DNA from: Xanthomonas fragariae
Lineage (GTDB): Bacteria > Pseudomonadota > Gammaproteobacteria > Xanthomonadales > Xanthomonadaceae
DNA length: 64,000 bases
Direction: 5' to 3'
Assembly: GCF_017603965.1 (NCBI RefSeq)
Contig: NZ_CP071955.1
Location: 992,001-1,056,000, forward strand
Shown in pieces: positions 1,994 to 34,340 of this stretch. The notes below the pieces were generated by a model, which searched no databases, had not been told where the DNA came from, and worked only from the letters and a program-made list of their open reading frames with translations. Position numbers and translations under genes: made by a program. How positions within the stretch are numbered: the first letter of the stretch is position 1; each line of letters opens with the position of its first letter.

Positions 1994-5195
<3,202 letters not shown>

Positions 5196-5608
5196 CGGAG
5201 GACTCCTGGTGGGGAGTTCAGGGTGCTTTGTAGCGCAAGTCGCCTGCAACTACCGGCCCCGCAATTCAGCTCAGGCGGGACTTGGCGTTCACCAATATGG
5301 GTTTGGCGCCACGCTACAACTCATGACAACCCGTCTAGTTGGAAGCGTATTCAGCGGCTTGGTTAGGCTACGGTTCATGCGTGTAGAATGTCCGAACTGA
5401 GCGCTCGGTCCTTTCCTTCATCAAACTGTATACGTAGTATCGCGTGGGATTGCGGGGTCTGGTGATTGCTTTCACATGTTATATGACCGTTAACGCGATC
5501 TTCACTGAGCCCGGCTTAATCTGCGCCCCGATGGCTCTTGATGTGACGAGCATCTTTACCAAGAACGACGCCTCTATCGGTTTATCTCCCAAAGAAGGAG
5601 CTGTATAA
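5196..5608. other. Intergenic region upstream of the OmpA-family gene
   Basis: This 413-base divergent spacer between the oxidoreductase and the porin gene is more AT-rich than the flanking genes. It should hold promoters for both. I see the ribosome-binding site AAGGAG at about 5595-5600 but cannot assign -35/-10 boxes with confidence, and no gene is visible. Confidence 0.5.
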
Positions 5609-27552: not shown

Positions 27553-27996
27553 ATGGCAAGGCAAGTGAGCGCGGGGTTGCTCCTGTTCGCGGCGAGTCTT
27601 ACAGCCAGCCATGCCTCGGCGGCGCTGACCCAGGTCGGCAAACCGTTCCAGCCGCAGGCAGAGCAGATGCGGGCCGATTTGAACAAGTGCGAGAAGTGCT
27701 CCGAGAGCAGTCAGCAAGAGCACGCTAAGGTGGCGGCGGCGCTCGCTTCGGAGTGGAGCGGTGTTGGAGGCGCAGCAGGACATCAGTGCACTGTAGCCTG
27801 ACCAGCGCGCAGCCGTCCGCAACGATCAGGAGCCCGTCACCAGAATTTTGACCGAGGCAGGCGAAGATAGCCGGCTGATTGCCTGCGCAAGCGTGCTTTT
27901 GGTTCGCAGATGAGTACGAAGCAGTGCCTGACGGCCGCCCAGCGCCGCCGTCAGACCACTGTGAGGCAAGACGACATTTCTCGGCGCCAGCGCTAA
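27553..27996 (+). pseudogene. Decayed gene for a small secreted protein
   Basis: An ATG at 27553 with GGAGG upstream opens a signal peptide (MARQVSAGLLLFAASLTASHASA) and the sequence ALTQVGKPFQPQAEQM...SSQQEHAKVAAAL. The frame then shifts near 27735-27760. The continuation VLEAQQDISAL is one frame over, hits a TAG at 27794-27796, and runs on as PDQRAAVRNDQ and ILTEAGEDSRLI. A third shift near 27880 leads to GSQMSTKQCLTAAQRRRQ, with a stop at 27994-27996. I recall a Xanthomonas family with this overall order (signal peptide, QAEQ..., AGEDSRLICRR..., MST..C), so this is a broken copy with at least three lesions. The function of the family is not known to me. Confidence 0.7.
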
Positions 27997-28021: not shown

Positions 28022-28699
28022 GTGCGAATTCTAGTCATCGAAGACAACAGCGATATCGCCGCCAATCTGGGCGACTATCTGGAAGACCGCGGCCACACCG
28101 TGGATTTCGCCGCCGACGGCGTGACCGGTCTGCATCTGGCCGTGGTGCACGAGTTCGACGCCATCGTGCTCGATCTCAACCTGCCCGGCATGGACGGCAT
28201 CGAGGTGTGTCGCAAGCTGCGCAACGAAGCGCGCAAGCAGACACCAGTACTGATGCTGACCGCGCGCGACTCGCTGGACAACAAGCTGGCCGGTTTCGAC
28301 TCCGGCGCCGACGACTACCTGATCAAGCCGTTCGCATTGCAGGAAGTGGAAGTGCGGCTCAACGCGCTGTCGCGTCGCGGCAAGGGCGTGCACACGCGGG
28401 TGCTGGAAACCGGCGATCTGGAATACAACCTGGACACGCTGGAAGTGCGCCGCCGCGGCAAGCTGCTGCAGCTCAACCCAACCGCGTTGAAGATCCTGCA
28501 GGCGCTGATGGAAGCCTCGCCGGCCGTGGTCACCCGCCAGGAACTGGAAACCCGCGTGTGGGGAGAAGAACTGCCGGATTCGGACTCGCTACGTGTGCAC
28601 ATCCACGGTCTGCGCGCGGTGGTGGATAAGCCGTTCGACGTACCGATGATCCAGACCCGTCACGGCATCGGCTACCGCATCGCCTCTCCCGATGCCTGA
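28022..28699 (+). CDS. OmpR-family two-component response regulator
   Basis: The 225-residue protein starts at a GTG with GAGG nearby. The receiver domain (1-120) has the acidic pocket ED at 7-8, phospho-acceptor D51 in IVLDLNLPGMDG, the TA motif (LMLTARD) and the lysine in YLIKPFA. The winged-helix domain (about 128-222) has LEVRRRGKLLQLNPTALKILQAL and the recognition/wing region SLRVHIHGLRAVVDKPF...THGIGYRIA-like end. It should pair with the kinase at 29158-30492. Two unusual things lie between them: a small secreted peptide gene and a terminator. The position near rimK and the pil cluster recalls the ColRS/VgrRS-type locus of X. campestris, but I am not sure enough to give a symbol. Confidence 0.9.
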   Translation: MRILVIEDNSDIAANLGDYLEDRGHTVDFAADGVTGLHLAVVHEFDAIVLDLNLPGMDGIEVCRKLRNEARKQTPVLMLTARDSLDNKLAGFDSGADDYLIKPFALQEVEVRLNALSRRGKGVHTRVLETGDLEYNLDTLEVRRRGKLLQLNPTALKILQALMEASPAVVTRQELETRVWGEELPDSDSLRVHIHGLRAVVDKPFDVPMIQTRHGIGYRIASPDA

Positions 28700-28866
28700 C
28701 TGTCGTCCCTCCGGAAACGCGTGTTGTTCGGGTCACATGGTCGACATGGTTCCTGAGGATCGCCGCCTTCTCTATTGGATGGTGTATTTTAAATGAATGG
28801 ATGCAAATATTTTGTATCGAGAGATGGTGGATAGCTGACAAGCGTGTCTGGACGACGGGAGAGTAA

Positions 28867-29055
28867 ATGATGAGGAAGTTATTTGCGGTTGTCATTTTGG
28901 CTGGGCTGACGCTTGGAGCTAGTTCTGCATCTGTCGCCAAATCGGCATGCACCGTTTGCACCTCAACTAGTTACGATTCAGGGTGGCTTGGTACATGGTC
29001 TTTCGACACTGGCTGCCATTCAGTTCCTTCTTGTTCTAACCCATTTCGATGGTAA
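28867..29055 (+). CDS. Small secreted four-cysteine peptide between regulator and sensor genes
   Basis: The 62-codon gene has GGGAG before adjacent ATG codons (28867, 28870). Residues 1-24 (MMRKLFAVVILAGLTLGASSASVA) form a clear Sec signal peptide. The mature peptide of about 37 residues has four cysteines (C28, C31, C50, C56; CTVCTSTSYDSGW...DTGCHSVPSCSNPFRW) and an aromatic C-terminus. A rho-independent terminator follows directly, which supports a real transcript. The surrounding DNA is near 47% GC (counted over 28801-28920) against about 70% in the kinase catalytic half. I know no family for it. A periplasmic or secreted ligand, or a modulator of the adjacent kinase, is an inference from position. 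Confidence 0.65.
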   Translation: MMRKLFAVVILAGLTLGASSASVAKSACTVCTSTSYDSGWLGTWSFDTGCHSVPSCSNPFRW

Positions 29056-29064
29056 CGATTTGCG

Positions 29065-29092
29065 ATAGCGGCCCAATGGGCCGCTATTTTTT
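29065..29092 (+). terminator. Rho-independent terminator after the secreted peptide gene
   Basis: ATAGCGGCCC and GGGCCGCTAT form a 10-base stem around AAT, followed by TTTTTT. It lies ten bases after the peptide stop and 66 bases before the kinase start, so the kinase depends on read-through or its own promoter. Confidence 0.85.
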
Positions 29093-29157
29093 GCGGAGTG
29101 TGACTTGCTGATTCGCGTGATTATCTGCAGTATCGGCATTCCTATGCAGGTCATGCC

Positions 29158-30492
29158 ATGAGGTCCGAATTAGTGGGGCGAATAATCAAAGCCCGTAGCA
29201 GGCGGCGTCTACGCACCCGCATCATACTGTCGTTCTTGTTGTTCGGTACTGGGCTGGTGATTCTGTTTGCGCTTGCGACAGTCTGGGCTAATCGATACAT
29301 CGAAACCAAGATGATCGAGGACGTGATGAATCGCAACATCGAAGTGATGGCGCGGTCGTATGCGGCGAATCCGAATGCGAAGCCCACGCTCCAAGTCGAA
29401 GAGATGTATGCGCGTGCGGTTAATCCAAACGATCCGGAGGCGATGGCGCGGCTTGCGCGAGATTTTCCGGGCTGGGGAAAGATGCAGGAAGGTATCCAGG
29501 GCTACAGTGGGACAGATGAATTCAATAAACCGCTGGTGTACAAGGTTGCAGTGCGAAAAACGCCAAGTGCTTGGTTCTTCCTTGCGTACGATACGACGCG
29601 AGCCAGTGTTGCTCAGGATCGGCTAAGAACTTGGTTGTACATTTCTGTGCTGCTGTTTGGTTTTTTTTCACTGCTGATCGGTCGGTGGTCGGCGTCCAAG
29701 GTCATGCGCCCGGTGTCGGACCTGGCCGCACGCCTGCGCGCCTATCGCGGTGGCACCAGCGAGCCCAAACCGCTAGCCGCGTATTTCCCCGACGACGAAG
29801 TGGGCCAGCTCGCCGAAGCGCTGGACGATTATTCGGCCCGCCTCACCGAGGTCGTGCAGCGCGACCGCGAATTCAACGCCGACGTCAGCCACGAACTGCG
29901 CACCCCGCTGGCGGTCATCCGCGGCGCCACCGAACTGCTGCTCAGCAAGCCCAATCTCGACGAAAAGATGCTGCAACGCCTGCAGCGCATCCAGCGCGCC
30001 GAACTGCAGTGCAGCGACCTCATCGGTTCGCTGCTGCTGCTCTCGCGCAATGAGCGCGTGCAAGGCAGCAGCAACGTCGCCAAGGTGGCCGAACAACTGA
30101 TCGACGCGCACCGCGCACAACTCGGCGGCAAACCGCTGGAACTTCTGCTGGAAGGCGAACGCGACCTGATCATCGACGCACCGGAATCCGCGCTATCGGT
30201 CGCACTCGGCAACCTGATCGGCAACGCCGTCAAATACACCCAGGACGGCCAGGTGCGCGTGCGTGTGCTCAGCGATGCAGTAGAGGTGATCGACTCCGGC
30301 CCGGGCCTGAGCGAAGAGGACGCCGCCAAACTGTTCCAGCGCGGTTACCGCGGCACCCACGCCGGCCACTCGCAAGGCGGCGGCATCGGCCTGTCGATCG
30401 TCAGCCGGCTCTGTGATCTGTACGGCTGGCGCGTCAGCGTGCGACCAGGCCAGGAGCGCGGCGTCATCGCAACACTGGCATTCCATCGCTAA
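29158..30492 (+). CDS. Sensor histidine kinase with an AT-richer sensor half
   Basis: The 444-residue kinase has membrane segments at about 23-43 and 160-175 enclosing a periplasmic sensor of about 115 residues. A HAMP-like linker (180-235) follows, then HisKA with the phospho-histidine in DVSHELRTPLAVIRG (H245). A HATPase domain has an N-box GNLIGNAVKYTQ, G1 VIDSGPGLSEED and G2 GGGIGLSIVSRLC. Base composition changes abruptly near 29690, just after the second membrane segment. Sample lines are 48% GC at 29221-29340 and 72% at 29881-29940. The sensor therefore appears to have a different history from the catalytic core. Partner: the regulator at 28022-28699. Confidence 0.9.
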   Translation: MRSELVGRIIKARSRRRLRTRIILSFLLFGTGLVILFALATVWANRYIETKMIEDVMNRNIEVMARSYAANPNAKPTLQVEEMYARAVNPNDPEAMARLARDFPGWGKMQEGIQGYSGTDEFNKPLVYKVAVRKTPSAWFFLAYDTTRASVAQDRLRTWLYISVLLFGFFSLLIGRWSASKVMRPVSDLAARLRAYRGGTSEPKPLAAYFPDDEVGQLAEALDDYSARLTEVVQRDREFNADVSHELRTPLAVIRGATELLLSKPNLDEKMLQRLQRIQRAELQCSDLIGSLLLLSRNERVQGSSNVAKVAEQLIDAHRAQLGGKPLELLLEGERDLIIDAPESALSVALGNLIGNAVKYTQDGQVRVRVLSDAVEVIDSGPGLSEEDAAKLFQRGYRGTHAGHSQGGGIGLSIVSRLCDLYGWRVSVRPGQERGVIATLAFHR

Positions 30493-30640: not shown

Positions 30641-31486
<846 letters not shown>

Positions 31487-32617: not shown

Positions 32618-34087
32618 TCACTTCATCTTGCATTTTGTCTGACAGGCACTAAGCGAATCGTCTGACCACTCTTGGCAGTCAACGCCGAACGGAATTCCAT
32701 AGCGTGGACGCGGGCCTGCAAATTTCTTGAGCAAGCATTGCTCAATGCAGGTGTTGTCGGGCTCTTTTTGCTCACACGTTTTCGCGTCGTATTTGTCATT
32801 ACTTGGTTTGCCTGGGCCATTTATCGGGTCGTACCAATTTTGACCGCGTTGATCTTGCCCGCCACATGTATATCCATTTTTGCCATCTTTAATGCACAAG
32901 TATTGGTGATACAGAGGATTGCCAGGAATATCCAATCCAGATCGCTTACCTTTACCGCCAAGTGCATGCAGTGGTTTCGTGCACATGAATGTCTTCAATC
33001 CGAGTGGGTCATTTCCCACCGTAGGCGACCCATCCGCGTAAGAGTAGGGATTGATGCCGCCATCAAGACCAATCGGATCACTCTGCCCATACCGCCCGGT
33101 AGCAGGATCATAGTCCCGGAAGTAGTTCTGATTCAGCCCACTCGCCGCATCGTACCGCTGCCCCGGAAAACGCATATCCAACACCAACGCCGCGCCATCT
33201 CCATCCGGATCCTGATTCGGCGCGGTATTGCCGAATGCTTCGCCCTTCAGGCTCCACGTCCACACCGCCACATCGCGGGTCGGGTCGATCACGACGCGTG
33301 GGCTGCCCAGGTGATCCGGTTCGATGTAATGCAGCTTGTTTGCGTTGGCCAGCAGGCCGACCGGTAGGTCATCCAGCCAGATCGCTTGTTGCTTGGGTGC
33401 TGCATTGCTGTCGTAGTCGCCTAGCCAGTGGCCGGCTTCGTCAAAGAGCGTGTAGGTGTTGCTGGTGCCGAGGGAGCGCTGCACCTGTTCGCCTTTGCCG
33501 TTGTAGCGGTAGTTCATGCTCGCCACGCCGGCGCGGCGGGCCTGGGTCATGCGGCCGCTGGCGTCGTAGGTGTACTGGCGGGCGGCGCCGCCGATGGCGG
33601 TGGTGTTGCCGGTTGTGTCGTAGCTGCGTGCCACGCCGGCGACCGCGCTGAGGCGATGGCTGTCGGCCGGGTAGGCGTAGGCCTGCGTAGTCGCGCCGAC
33701 CTTGGCGCTGCGGCGGTTGCCGGTGGCGTCGTAGCTGTAGCCGTCGATCAGGGTGCCGGTGCCGCCGTCTTTGAGGGTGGTCAGGCGGCCCAGGGCGTCG
33801 TAGCTCAAACCTATCTCCGGCGTCGTGTTGCCGGCTGGCGTGAGTGCGCTGAGGTTGCCAGCCGGGTCGAAACCGAAGCCGACTCCCAGCCCGCCTGGGC
33901 GGGTGTCCTGGATCGCTTGCGGGCGATCATCCAGATCGTACCGGCGAGTGAGCGTGCGACCGTTGCCGTAAGTCCAGCCAGCTGCCGGGCCGAACGGGTA
34001 ATAGCTGGCTTTGCCCAGTAATACCTGACGGCTGCCGCCGACCGGGGTCACGCCCACCTCGGTGGTCTGGCCTTGCGCGTTGCGCAC
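32618..34087 (-). pseudogene. Displaced (orphan) Rhs C-terminal tip with a cysteine-rich toxin end
   Basis: From 34087 to 33069 this is a near-identical copy of 35917-34899 in the large Rhs gene (constant offset of 1830, about 1019 bases, few substitutions, no indels). It encodes the last Rhs repeats and the conserved RYGQSDPIGLDGG/NDPLGL core end. It then diverges into a 125-residue tail (KTFMCTKPLHALGGKGKRSG...) with nine cysteines. There is no start of its own: the open frame begins at an ATG at 34114 inside the upstream immunity gene. Such tips are stored toxin modules that can recombine into the main gene. The tail matches no family I know. Confidence 0.8.
33069..34087 (-). repeat. Rhs core direct repeat, copy 1 (pairs with 34899-35917)
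   Basis: The block aligns base for base with 34899-35917 at a fixed offset of 1830. Examples of identical runs are CCAATCGGATCACTCTGCCC at the low end and GGTGGTCTGGCCTTGCGCGT near the high end. Only scattered single-base changes are seen. Homology stops at TGCGCAC on both copies. Confidence 0.9.
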
Positions 34088-34100
34088 GCACTGATGAGGG

Positions 34101-34340
34101 TCATAGCTCCACAATGCCTCCTCTTCGAATGAGTACTAAATTTAAGTTGGATTGCTCGTGAATTAAACCAGCATCCTCTGTAAGCACCAATACTCCTTTG
34201 CCAAGATATGACCAGTCACGCTCACTGTATCCCTCCGCATAATCTGCCTGGTCGATGATTGCCACTACAGTTCCACGCAGATCAGATCCAAGTGAAACAA
34301 TATCACCTAGAAGAATACTCTCGCCACTTTCATAATTCAT
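34101..34340 (-). CDS. Small acidic protein, probable immunity for the main Rhs toxin
   Basis: The 79-residue protein (MNYESGESILLGDIVSLGSD...) has no signal or membrane segment and is acidic, as cytoplasmic immunity proteins often are. AGGTGA, eight bases before its ATG, overlaps the stop of the large Rhs gene, so the two are translationally coupled. Its last bases abut the displaced Rhs tip. A RGTVVAIIDQADYAEGY...WSYLGKGVLV pattern recalls small immunity-like proteins found behind Rhs toxins, but I cannot name the family. Confidence 0.65.
   Translation of the reverse strand: MNYESGESILLGDIVSLGSDLRGTVVAIIDQADYAEGYSERDWSYLGKGVLVLTEDAGLIHEQSNLNLVLIRRGGIVEL

What the first reader, a model, noticed from the sequence alone, without database searches (positions are those of the whole stretch)
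28022..30492. Secreted four-cysteine micro-peptide encoded between a response regulator and its kinase, with an apparently exchanged sensor half
Seen directly: an intact regulator gene, then a 62-codon gene with a strong ribosome-binding site, signal peptide and four cysteines, then its own terminator, then a kinase. Lines I counted are 47-48% GC from 28801 to about 29340, against 72% in the kinase catalytic half, and the change falls near 29690, right after the second membrane segment. The simplest reading is that peptide and sensor domain arrived or recombined as one block while regulator and catalytic core stayed. That is what one expects if the peptide is the ligand, or a dedicated modulator, of the sensor, giving a strain-specific peptide-receptor pair. 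I know of no described family for the peptide. The system call is inference.
Basis: partly seen in the sequence, partly recalled or inferred. Interest (0 to 1): 0.78.

Follow-up and report, generated by a model that had tools for sequence, protein, structure and literature searches.

The report
Swapped sensor cassette with secreted peptide
In a Xanthomonas bacterium, a stretch of DNA about 1,000 bases long has replaced the sensing half of the iron and virulence sensor VgrS and brought in a tiny, apparently secreted four-cysteine protein; the same swap turns up in four other relatives, so this sensor is apparently re-tooled by gene exchange, and the little protein may help to control it.

Summary
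Window 28700 to about 29690 is an AT-rich block in the vgrR-vgrS (colR-colS) two-component locus: a leader repeat, a 4-Cys peptide gene (59-62 codons), a covarying terminator and the kinase's sensor half. Regulator and kinase core are native: mostly 90-96% DNA identity to X. hortorum/X. populi, against 53-65% in the sensor. Five of 395 family genomes carry this sensor type; the sensors form one clade, but the kinase cores lie in five places (AU p = 2.9e-9). One genome keeps the sensor but has lost the mature peptide; another has peptide and terminator with its native, unrelated sensor; the nearest sister sensors have no peptide. Yet every convincing peptide hit in genomes lies between vgrR and vgrS, and the peptide is under purifying selection. 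The new sensor lacks the Fe3+-binding ExxE and has a changed residue at the Prc cleavage site. Best reading: an exchangeable input module whose peptide modulates VgrS-VgrR. The exchange is shown; the peptide's action is inferred (about 0.45).

The parts
28022..28699 (+). Response regulator, VgrR (ColR) orthologue, GTG start; native to the host lineage
   Evidence: Pfam Response_reg + Trans_reg_C; 98.7% identical to X. populi and 99.1% to X. hortorum at protein level; DNA profile
28700..29690 (+). Exchanged AT-rich cassette: leader, peptide gene, terminator, spacer, sensor half of the kinase (right edge approximate)
   Evidence: DNA identity profile, trees, GC
28797..28821 (+). Inverted repeat / candidate RNA hairpin in the leader of the peptide gene
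   Evidence: 58 of 65 cells pair (89.2%), 3 of 11 pairs changed on both sides (27 of 500 shuffles reach that), 15 of 500 shuffles reach the covariation score; six sequences only: suggestive
28867..29055 (+). Four-cysteine peptide gene, exported by the look of its N-terminus (start conserved in relatives: 28870); mature part about residues 25-62
   Evidence: Relatives in X. oryzae, X. cucurbitae, X. albilineans, Stenotrophomonas sp. MMGLT7, a metagenome and G237; dN < dS in 6 of 6 pairs of four sequences
29064..29092 (+). Intrinsic terminator between peptide gene and kinase
   Evidence: 66 of 66 cells paired over six loci, 4 of 11 pairs changed on both sides
29093..29157 (+). Spacer upstream of the kinase, presumably holding its promoter (inferred)
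   Evidence: Alignable in the five cassette loci
29158..30492 (+). Sensor histidine kinase, VgrS (ColS) orthologue, hybrid: foreign sensor half, native HAMP/HisKA/HATPase half
   Evidence: Pfam HisKA, HATPase_c, HAMP below its cut-off; per-segment identity
29287..29631 (+). Periplasmic sensor (residues 44-158), predicted PDC/Cache-like fold, no ExxE at the VgrS Fe3+ site
   Evidence: AlphaFold2 pLDDT 80.3, VIA-align (Foldseek alone gave no match at E <= 0.001), alignment, motif position from PMC5231390
29691..30492 (+). Native HAMP and kinase core
   Evidence: 98-99% protein identity to X. hortorum/X. populi; tree

Best explanation
The locus is VgrR-VgrS with an exchanged input module. Homologous recombination between the conserved end of vgrR and the conserved TM2/HAMP region of vgrS replaced the native junction and sensor with an AT-rich cassette: leader repeat, 4-Cys peptide gene, terminator, new kinase leader and new PDC-like sensor. 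The cassette now sits in five lineages that the kinase core keeps apart, so at least four transfers are needed if one of them is the source (exchange shown, route inferred). The new sensor lacks the ExxE that binds Fe3+ in Xcc VgrS and has Arg instead of Gln after the Prc-cleaved Ala, so the kinase's known inputs should be altered (sequence shown, effect inferred). The terminator should separate transcription of regulator plus peptide from the kinase, which form one operon in Xcc (inferred). The peptide is most likely exported, stabilised by disulfides or a metal, and tunes VgrS from the periplasmic side as an accessory modulator, in the way small proteins such as MgrB act on PhoQ, rather than being a lineage-specific pheromone (inferred).
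For: Block and edges. Sensor one clade (100/97), core five places, AU p = 2.9e-9: (50 of the 81 kinases aligned). Sensor dS below core dS in 8 of 10 cassette pairs (all but L036-L038 and L038-L117). Peptide gene in the vgrR-vgrS gap in all 5 cassette loci (4 intact, 1 truncated); no peptide match at E < 0.01 in the other 74 named loci, whose gaps are 2-26 nt. Profile search of 395 family genomes: 8 hits, of which the 6 convincing ones lie in that gap; 1 of 369 class genomes hits, the window's own; of 398 order genomes 3 hit, none convincing beyond the window's own (only the best 16-17 candidates per genome were scored). Selection on the mature peptide. Terminator covariation. VgrS identity: the NRNIDFFA peptide and E43-E46 numbering fit the alignments. 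PDC-like sensor fold.
Against: Same sensor without mature peptide in G239; peptide with an unrelated sensor in G237; peptide-less sister sensors in G169/G148. Sensor exchange also occurs without a peptide. Adjacent genes co-transfer by linkage alone. Loss of a strict ExxE is not unique to the cassette: of 12 cassette-less Xanthomonas sensors, 8 read EQPE, 2 EQPD and 2 DFPE. No direct evidence of expression, export or binding. The peptide model is poor (pLDDT 63.6).
Confidence: 0.45

Rival explanations
1. The peptide is an output, not an input: a VgrR-controlled periplasmic or secreted effector (metal-binding, redox or antimicrobial) that sits beside its regulator and hitch-hikes with the sensor.
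For: Peptide and sensor are separable: G239 lost the mature peptide, G237 has the peptide with a native sensor. The peptide gene follows vgrR directly and is cut off from the kinase by a terminator. Four conserved Cys.
Against: It stays in the vgrR-vgrS gap in all six loci across genera; an effector could sit elsewhere. No other gene conserved with it was seen in the gap.
Confidence: 0.3
2. Strict peptide-receptor allele pair: the peptide is the cognate ligand of the cassette sensor, and the pair spreads as a unit like Gram-positive pherotype cassettes.
For: All five cassette-sensor loci carry the peptide gene, 4 intact; one clade of the sensor type; five acceptor lineages.
Against: G239, G237 and the peptide-less sister sensors G169/G148. 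Identity to the window is 62-82% for the intact peptides against 88-96% for the sensors of the same loci, which does not suggest tight co-diversification (a weak argument).
Confidence: 0.12
3. The small ORF is mainly a leader: leader repeat, short ORF and terminator set how much kinase is made (attenuation or secretion monitoring), and the mature peptide is dispensable.
For: Terminator stem 8 nt after the stop codon here and 13-15 nt in the five relatives; covarying leader repeat; C-terminal NPF nearly conserved; G239 dispenses with the mature part.
Against: Of 17 invariant positions over seven peptides, 12 lie in the mature part, among them the four Cys. In the five relatives the stem starts 13-15 nt beyond the stop codon, outside a terminating ribosome as I recall its footprint; a search of the window alone for a perfect alternative pairing of the stem of 6 nt or more reported none.
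Confidence: 0.1

Closest known systems
VgrR-VgrS (ColR-ColS, XC1049-XC1050) of Xanthomonas campestris pv. campestris
   Same: Orthologous locus by kinase motif numbering and sequence of congeners; same kind of regulator and kinase core
   Different: Xcc vgrRS is a bicistronic operon (PMC5231390, passages); here a peptide gene and terminator intervene, the ExxE iron site is replaced and the sensor half is foreign. The Xcc sequence itself was not fetched
VgrS of X. oryzae pv. oryzae with a substituted periplasmic segment (Stewart and Ronald 2021, PMC8306577)
   Same: Its Figure 2 legend reports a conserved sequence substitution in Xoo VgrS that removes ExxE; the Xoo sensor P0003 is of the cassette type (91% identity over 97% of residues 1-175), and one X. 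oryzae genome encodes the peptide (P0001; its place in that genome was not seen)
   Different: The passages and section read there do not mention the peptide, the terminator, other species with the substitution or recombination
[quoted passage not shown]
   Different: No sequence relation was tested or claimed; MgrB is a membrane protein of the PhoP regulon; the peptide here looks exported and lies between regulator and kinase
Gram-positive pherotype cassettes (com, agr; recalled, from no call)
   Same: Signal gene and receptor sensor exchanged together as an allele beside a conserved signalling core
   Different: Here the partners are separable and no peptide processing or export gene was seen in the gap

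Membership tests
VgrR-VgrS two-component system | OmpR-type regulator plus HAMP-HisKA-HATPase kinase in one locus, orthologous to other Xanthomonas | tested here: met
   (HAMP below its cut-off); regulator 98.7-99.6% (L057 aligned over 151 residues only) and kinase core 94-99% identical to cassette-less loci of the X. campestris/axonopodis/arboricola group
VgrR-VgrS two-component system | Fe3+-binding ExxE at VgrS residues 43-46 | tested here: not met
   DFPG at that position in 5 of 5 cassette sensors; EQPE in 8, EQPD in 2 and DFPE in 2 of 12 cassette-less Xanthomonas sensors; motif and numbering from PMC5231390
VgrR-VgrS two-component system | regulator and kinase adjacent in one operon | tested here: not met
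   458 bp between them, with a covarying terminator; transcription itself not tested
[quoted passage not shown]
   By inspection of the alignment only; no signal-peptide predictor was run
[quoted passage not shown]
   Needs complex prediction or biochemistry
Peptide pheromone/receptor allele pair | peptide and sensor always occur as matched pairs | tested here: not met
   G239 and G237
Mobile or phage-borne peptide gene | relatives on plasmids or phages | tested here: inconclusive
   No match in 72,556 plasmid and 50,697 phage records; absence in these collections only

The most novel reading that the evidence does not exclude
VgrS is a kinase whose periplasmic input is traded as an allele across Lysobacteraceae, and one traded allele carries its own secreted four-cysteine signalling or metal-presenting peptide of an undescribed family. 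The swap would turn an iron-sensing virulence regulator into a peptide-gated one, a Gram-negative counterpart of exchangeable peptide/receptor cassettes.
Probability: 0.3. Interest if true: 0.85.

Novelty: new variant of a known kind. Interest (0 to 1): 0.62.

Why it matters
VgrR-VgrS controls iron response, osmostress response and virulence in Xanthomonas (PMC5231390, PMC6237974; passages), and the published sensing mechanism (Fe3+ at ExxE, cleavage by Prc) comes from a species with the ancestral type of sensor. Species with the exchanged sensor, X. oryzae pv. oryzae among them by protein sequence, lack that iron site. The cassette probably accounts for the substitution noted for Xoo VgrS, supplies a conserved, mostly unannotated peptide as a candidate partner, and offers natural experiments: sensor without mature peptide (G239) and peptide with another sensor (G237).

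Tried and rejected
RaxR-RaxH as the identity of the locus was rejected: raxR-raxH overlap and lie in the gcvP-minCDE region (PMC8306577, passages), whereas this locus follows rimK and matches VgrS numbering. Plasmid or phage origin: no match. Weak peptide hits in G060, G052 and G879 lie within or antisense to long frames that read, by eye, as other genes and were taken as chance. Rfam gave only two sub-threshold matches on the gap. Peptide structure: pLDDT 63.6, hairpin-like, no Foldseek match better than E = 4.6, profile against PDB chains only E = 1.3 and 4.6; not used as evidence. Sensor: profile against PDB chains none at E <= 1, Foldseek none at E <= 0.001; the PDC/Cache call rests on the VIA second look. 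The VgrR binding motif could not be checked before the peptide gene: its sequence is not in the passages read, and five motif terms do not occur in PMC6004745. Searches scored only the best 16-17 candidates per genome, so weak peptide relatives may be missed; one search scored all candidates of 20 genomes of G239's genus and hit 2 (G239, G250). L113 and L114 (27-31% identity, other groups) were dropped before the counts. Trees used 50 of 81 aligned kinases. The second sensor class tested was picked after seeing the sensor tree and alignment. The Fisher values ignore kinship and are not used.

Full report
WHAT IS THERE. The window holds rimK, then a GTG-started OmpR-family regulator (28022-28699), a 62-codon ORF (28867-29055), a hairpin with a T-run, and a HAMP-HisKA-HATPase kinase (29158-30492). 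GC is 63.4% in the regulator, 48.1% in the peptide gene, 52.9% in 29158-29690 and 66.3% beyond.

WHICH SYSTEM. Most cassette-less Xanthomonas relatives of the kinase begin their sensor MNRNIDAFAQ. The Xcc VgrS peptide cut off by the protease Prc is NRNIDFFA, between Ala9 and Gln10 (PMC6237974, passages), and the Fe3+-binding ExxE is E43-E46 (PMC5231390, passages). Counting from that Met, 10 of the 12 cassette-less Xanthomonas sensors have EQPE (8) or EQPD (2) at 43-46. The locus is therefore VgrR-VgrS, also called ColR-ColS. It is not RaxR-RaxH, which lies elsewhere (PMC8306577). The kinase core places the window beside X. hortorum and X. populi. A 4.1-Mb genome would suit X. fragariae, which is recalled and was not tested.

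THE EXCHANGED BLOCK. Against X. populi and two X. hortorum loci the regulator and kinase core are mostly 90-96% identical in DNA (85-98% per 100-base bin), the sensor 53-65%, and most of the 458-bp gap is absent; identity jumps near 28700 and near 29690. Against X. cucurbitae and X. albilineans the sensor is 86-95%, mostly above the core (70-93%). Of 77 named loci plus the window, 4 have a long gap with the peptide gene (window, X. cucurbitae, X. albilineans, Stenotrophomonas sp. MMGLT7; 459-482 nt by the measure, which counts the stop codon). The other 74 have gaps of 2-26 nt and no peptide match at E < 0.01 (two unrelated loci were dropped). In 395 family genomes the sensor identity is split: 5 at 88-100%, two at 65% and 60%, all others listed at 54% or less (14 genomes had no match). 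Four of the five are the loci just named; the fifth is G239. On 50 of the 81 aligned kinases the five cassette sensors form one clade (100/97), whereas the kinase core puts them in five places; forcing one clade costs 286 log units, AU p = 2.9e-9. Third-position GC is 53-66% in the five cassette sensors against 81-93% in their own cores and 78-94% in seven other sensors. The block is thus of common, AT-richer origin and sits in five separate host lineages: at least four transfers, if one of the five is the source.

THE PEPTIDE. Relatives: X. oryzae (P0001, 59 aa), X. cucurbitae, X. albilineans, Stenotrophomonas, a metagenome (P0123) and genome G237. Seventeen positions are invariant over seven sequences, including the four Cys, G39, W40, G42 and W44 of the mature part. 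dN is below dS in 6 of 6 pairs of four sequences. No Pfam family, and no NCBIfam family above its cut-off, matches. The search of 5.8 billion proteins found 1 relative with one sequence and 3 with a profile, that one included. A signal-like N-terminus is seen by inspection only.

TERMINATOR AND LEADER. The terminator pairs in 66 of 66 cells over six loci, with 4 of 11 pairs changed on both sides; 2 of 500 shuffles reach that. In Xcc vgrR and vgrS share one transcript (PMC5231390), so the cassette should uncouple them; this is inferred. A repeat at 28797-28821 upstream of the peptide covaries weakly (3 of 11 pairs; 27 of 500 shuffles reach that); six sequences cannot settle it.

RESULTS AGAINST A STRICT PAIR. 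G239 (sensor 94%) has an internal deletion of the peptide gene that removes the mature part and leaves about 25 codons. G237, of another genus, has peptide and terminator between vgrR and vgrS, yet its sensor is 32% identical to the window's and 76-81% to six congeners without peptide; 1 of 25 genomes of that genus has it. The sister sensors G169 and G148 have vgrR and vgrS adjacent (8 and -1 nt) and no peptide. A second sensor class (NLxxSW, 5 of the 50 rows) also changes lineages, four changes on the core tree and AU p = 1.5e-46, without any peptide; it was picked after the sensor tree was seen. Sensor exchange in VgrS is thus more general than the peptide, and linkage alone could explain their co-transfer.

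MECHANISM. Shown: exchange of the block, conservation of peptide and terminator, loss of ExxE. Inferred: export, uncoupled transcription, and modulation of VgrS by the peptide. I give the modulator reading about 0.45, a hitch-hiking VgrR output 0.3, a strict cognate ligand 0.12 and a leader device 0.1.

KNOWN AND NEW. Stewart and Ronald (PMC8306577; abstract, outline, passages with the Figure 2 legend, and section 3.2 seen) reported the substituted segment in Xoo VgrS; the Xoo protein P0003 suggests that it is this cassette sensor. In the parts read they do not mention the peptide. I found no paper on the peptide, the terminator or the multi-species exchange in my searches (listings); most subscription papers are not held, and the Xoo ColRS study of 2012 could not be opened.

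Noticed in passing
L067, L068, L092, L095, L098 (VgrS sensor): A second VgrS sensor class (NLxxSW motif) is scattered over unrelated lineages, so sensor exchange in this kinase looks general.
   Followed up: partly
L117 (G239), peptide gene upstream of the kinase: Internal deletion removing the mature peptide, with leader, terminator and cassette sensor present: a natural strain without mature peptide.
   Followed up: yes
L153 (G237), about 4871-5472: About 600 bp of AT-rich gap with peptide and terminator beside a native sensor; by eye, a stretch near the kinase start (GTGCCGGCCTTGCCAT) resembles the cassette spacer.
   Followed up: partly
window 28797-28821: Near-palindromic repeat upstream of the peptide gene, kept in six loci with some compensatory changes: RNA hairpin or operator.
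   Followed up: partly
window 27553-27801: Small ORF upstream of vgrR with a signal-like start and three cysteines; not analysed.
   Followed up: no
window 30641-31419, minus strand: By reading, a DUF1778-like and an acetyltransferase-like gene in tandem that look like a TacA-TacT type toxin-antitoxin pair (names recalled, not searched).
   Followed up: no
window 32618-34114, minus strand: ORF with Rhs-type repeats and a divergent C-terminal tail (by reading).
   Followed up: no
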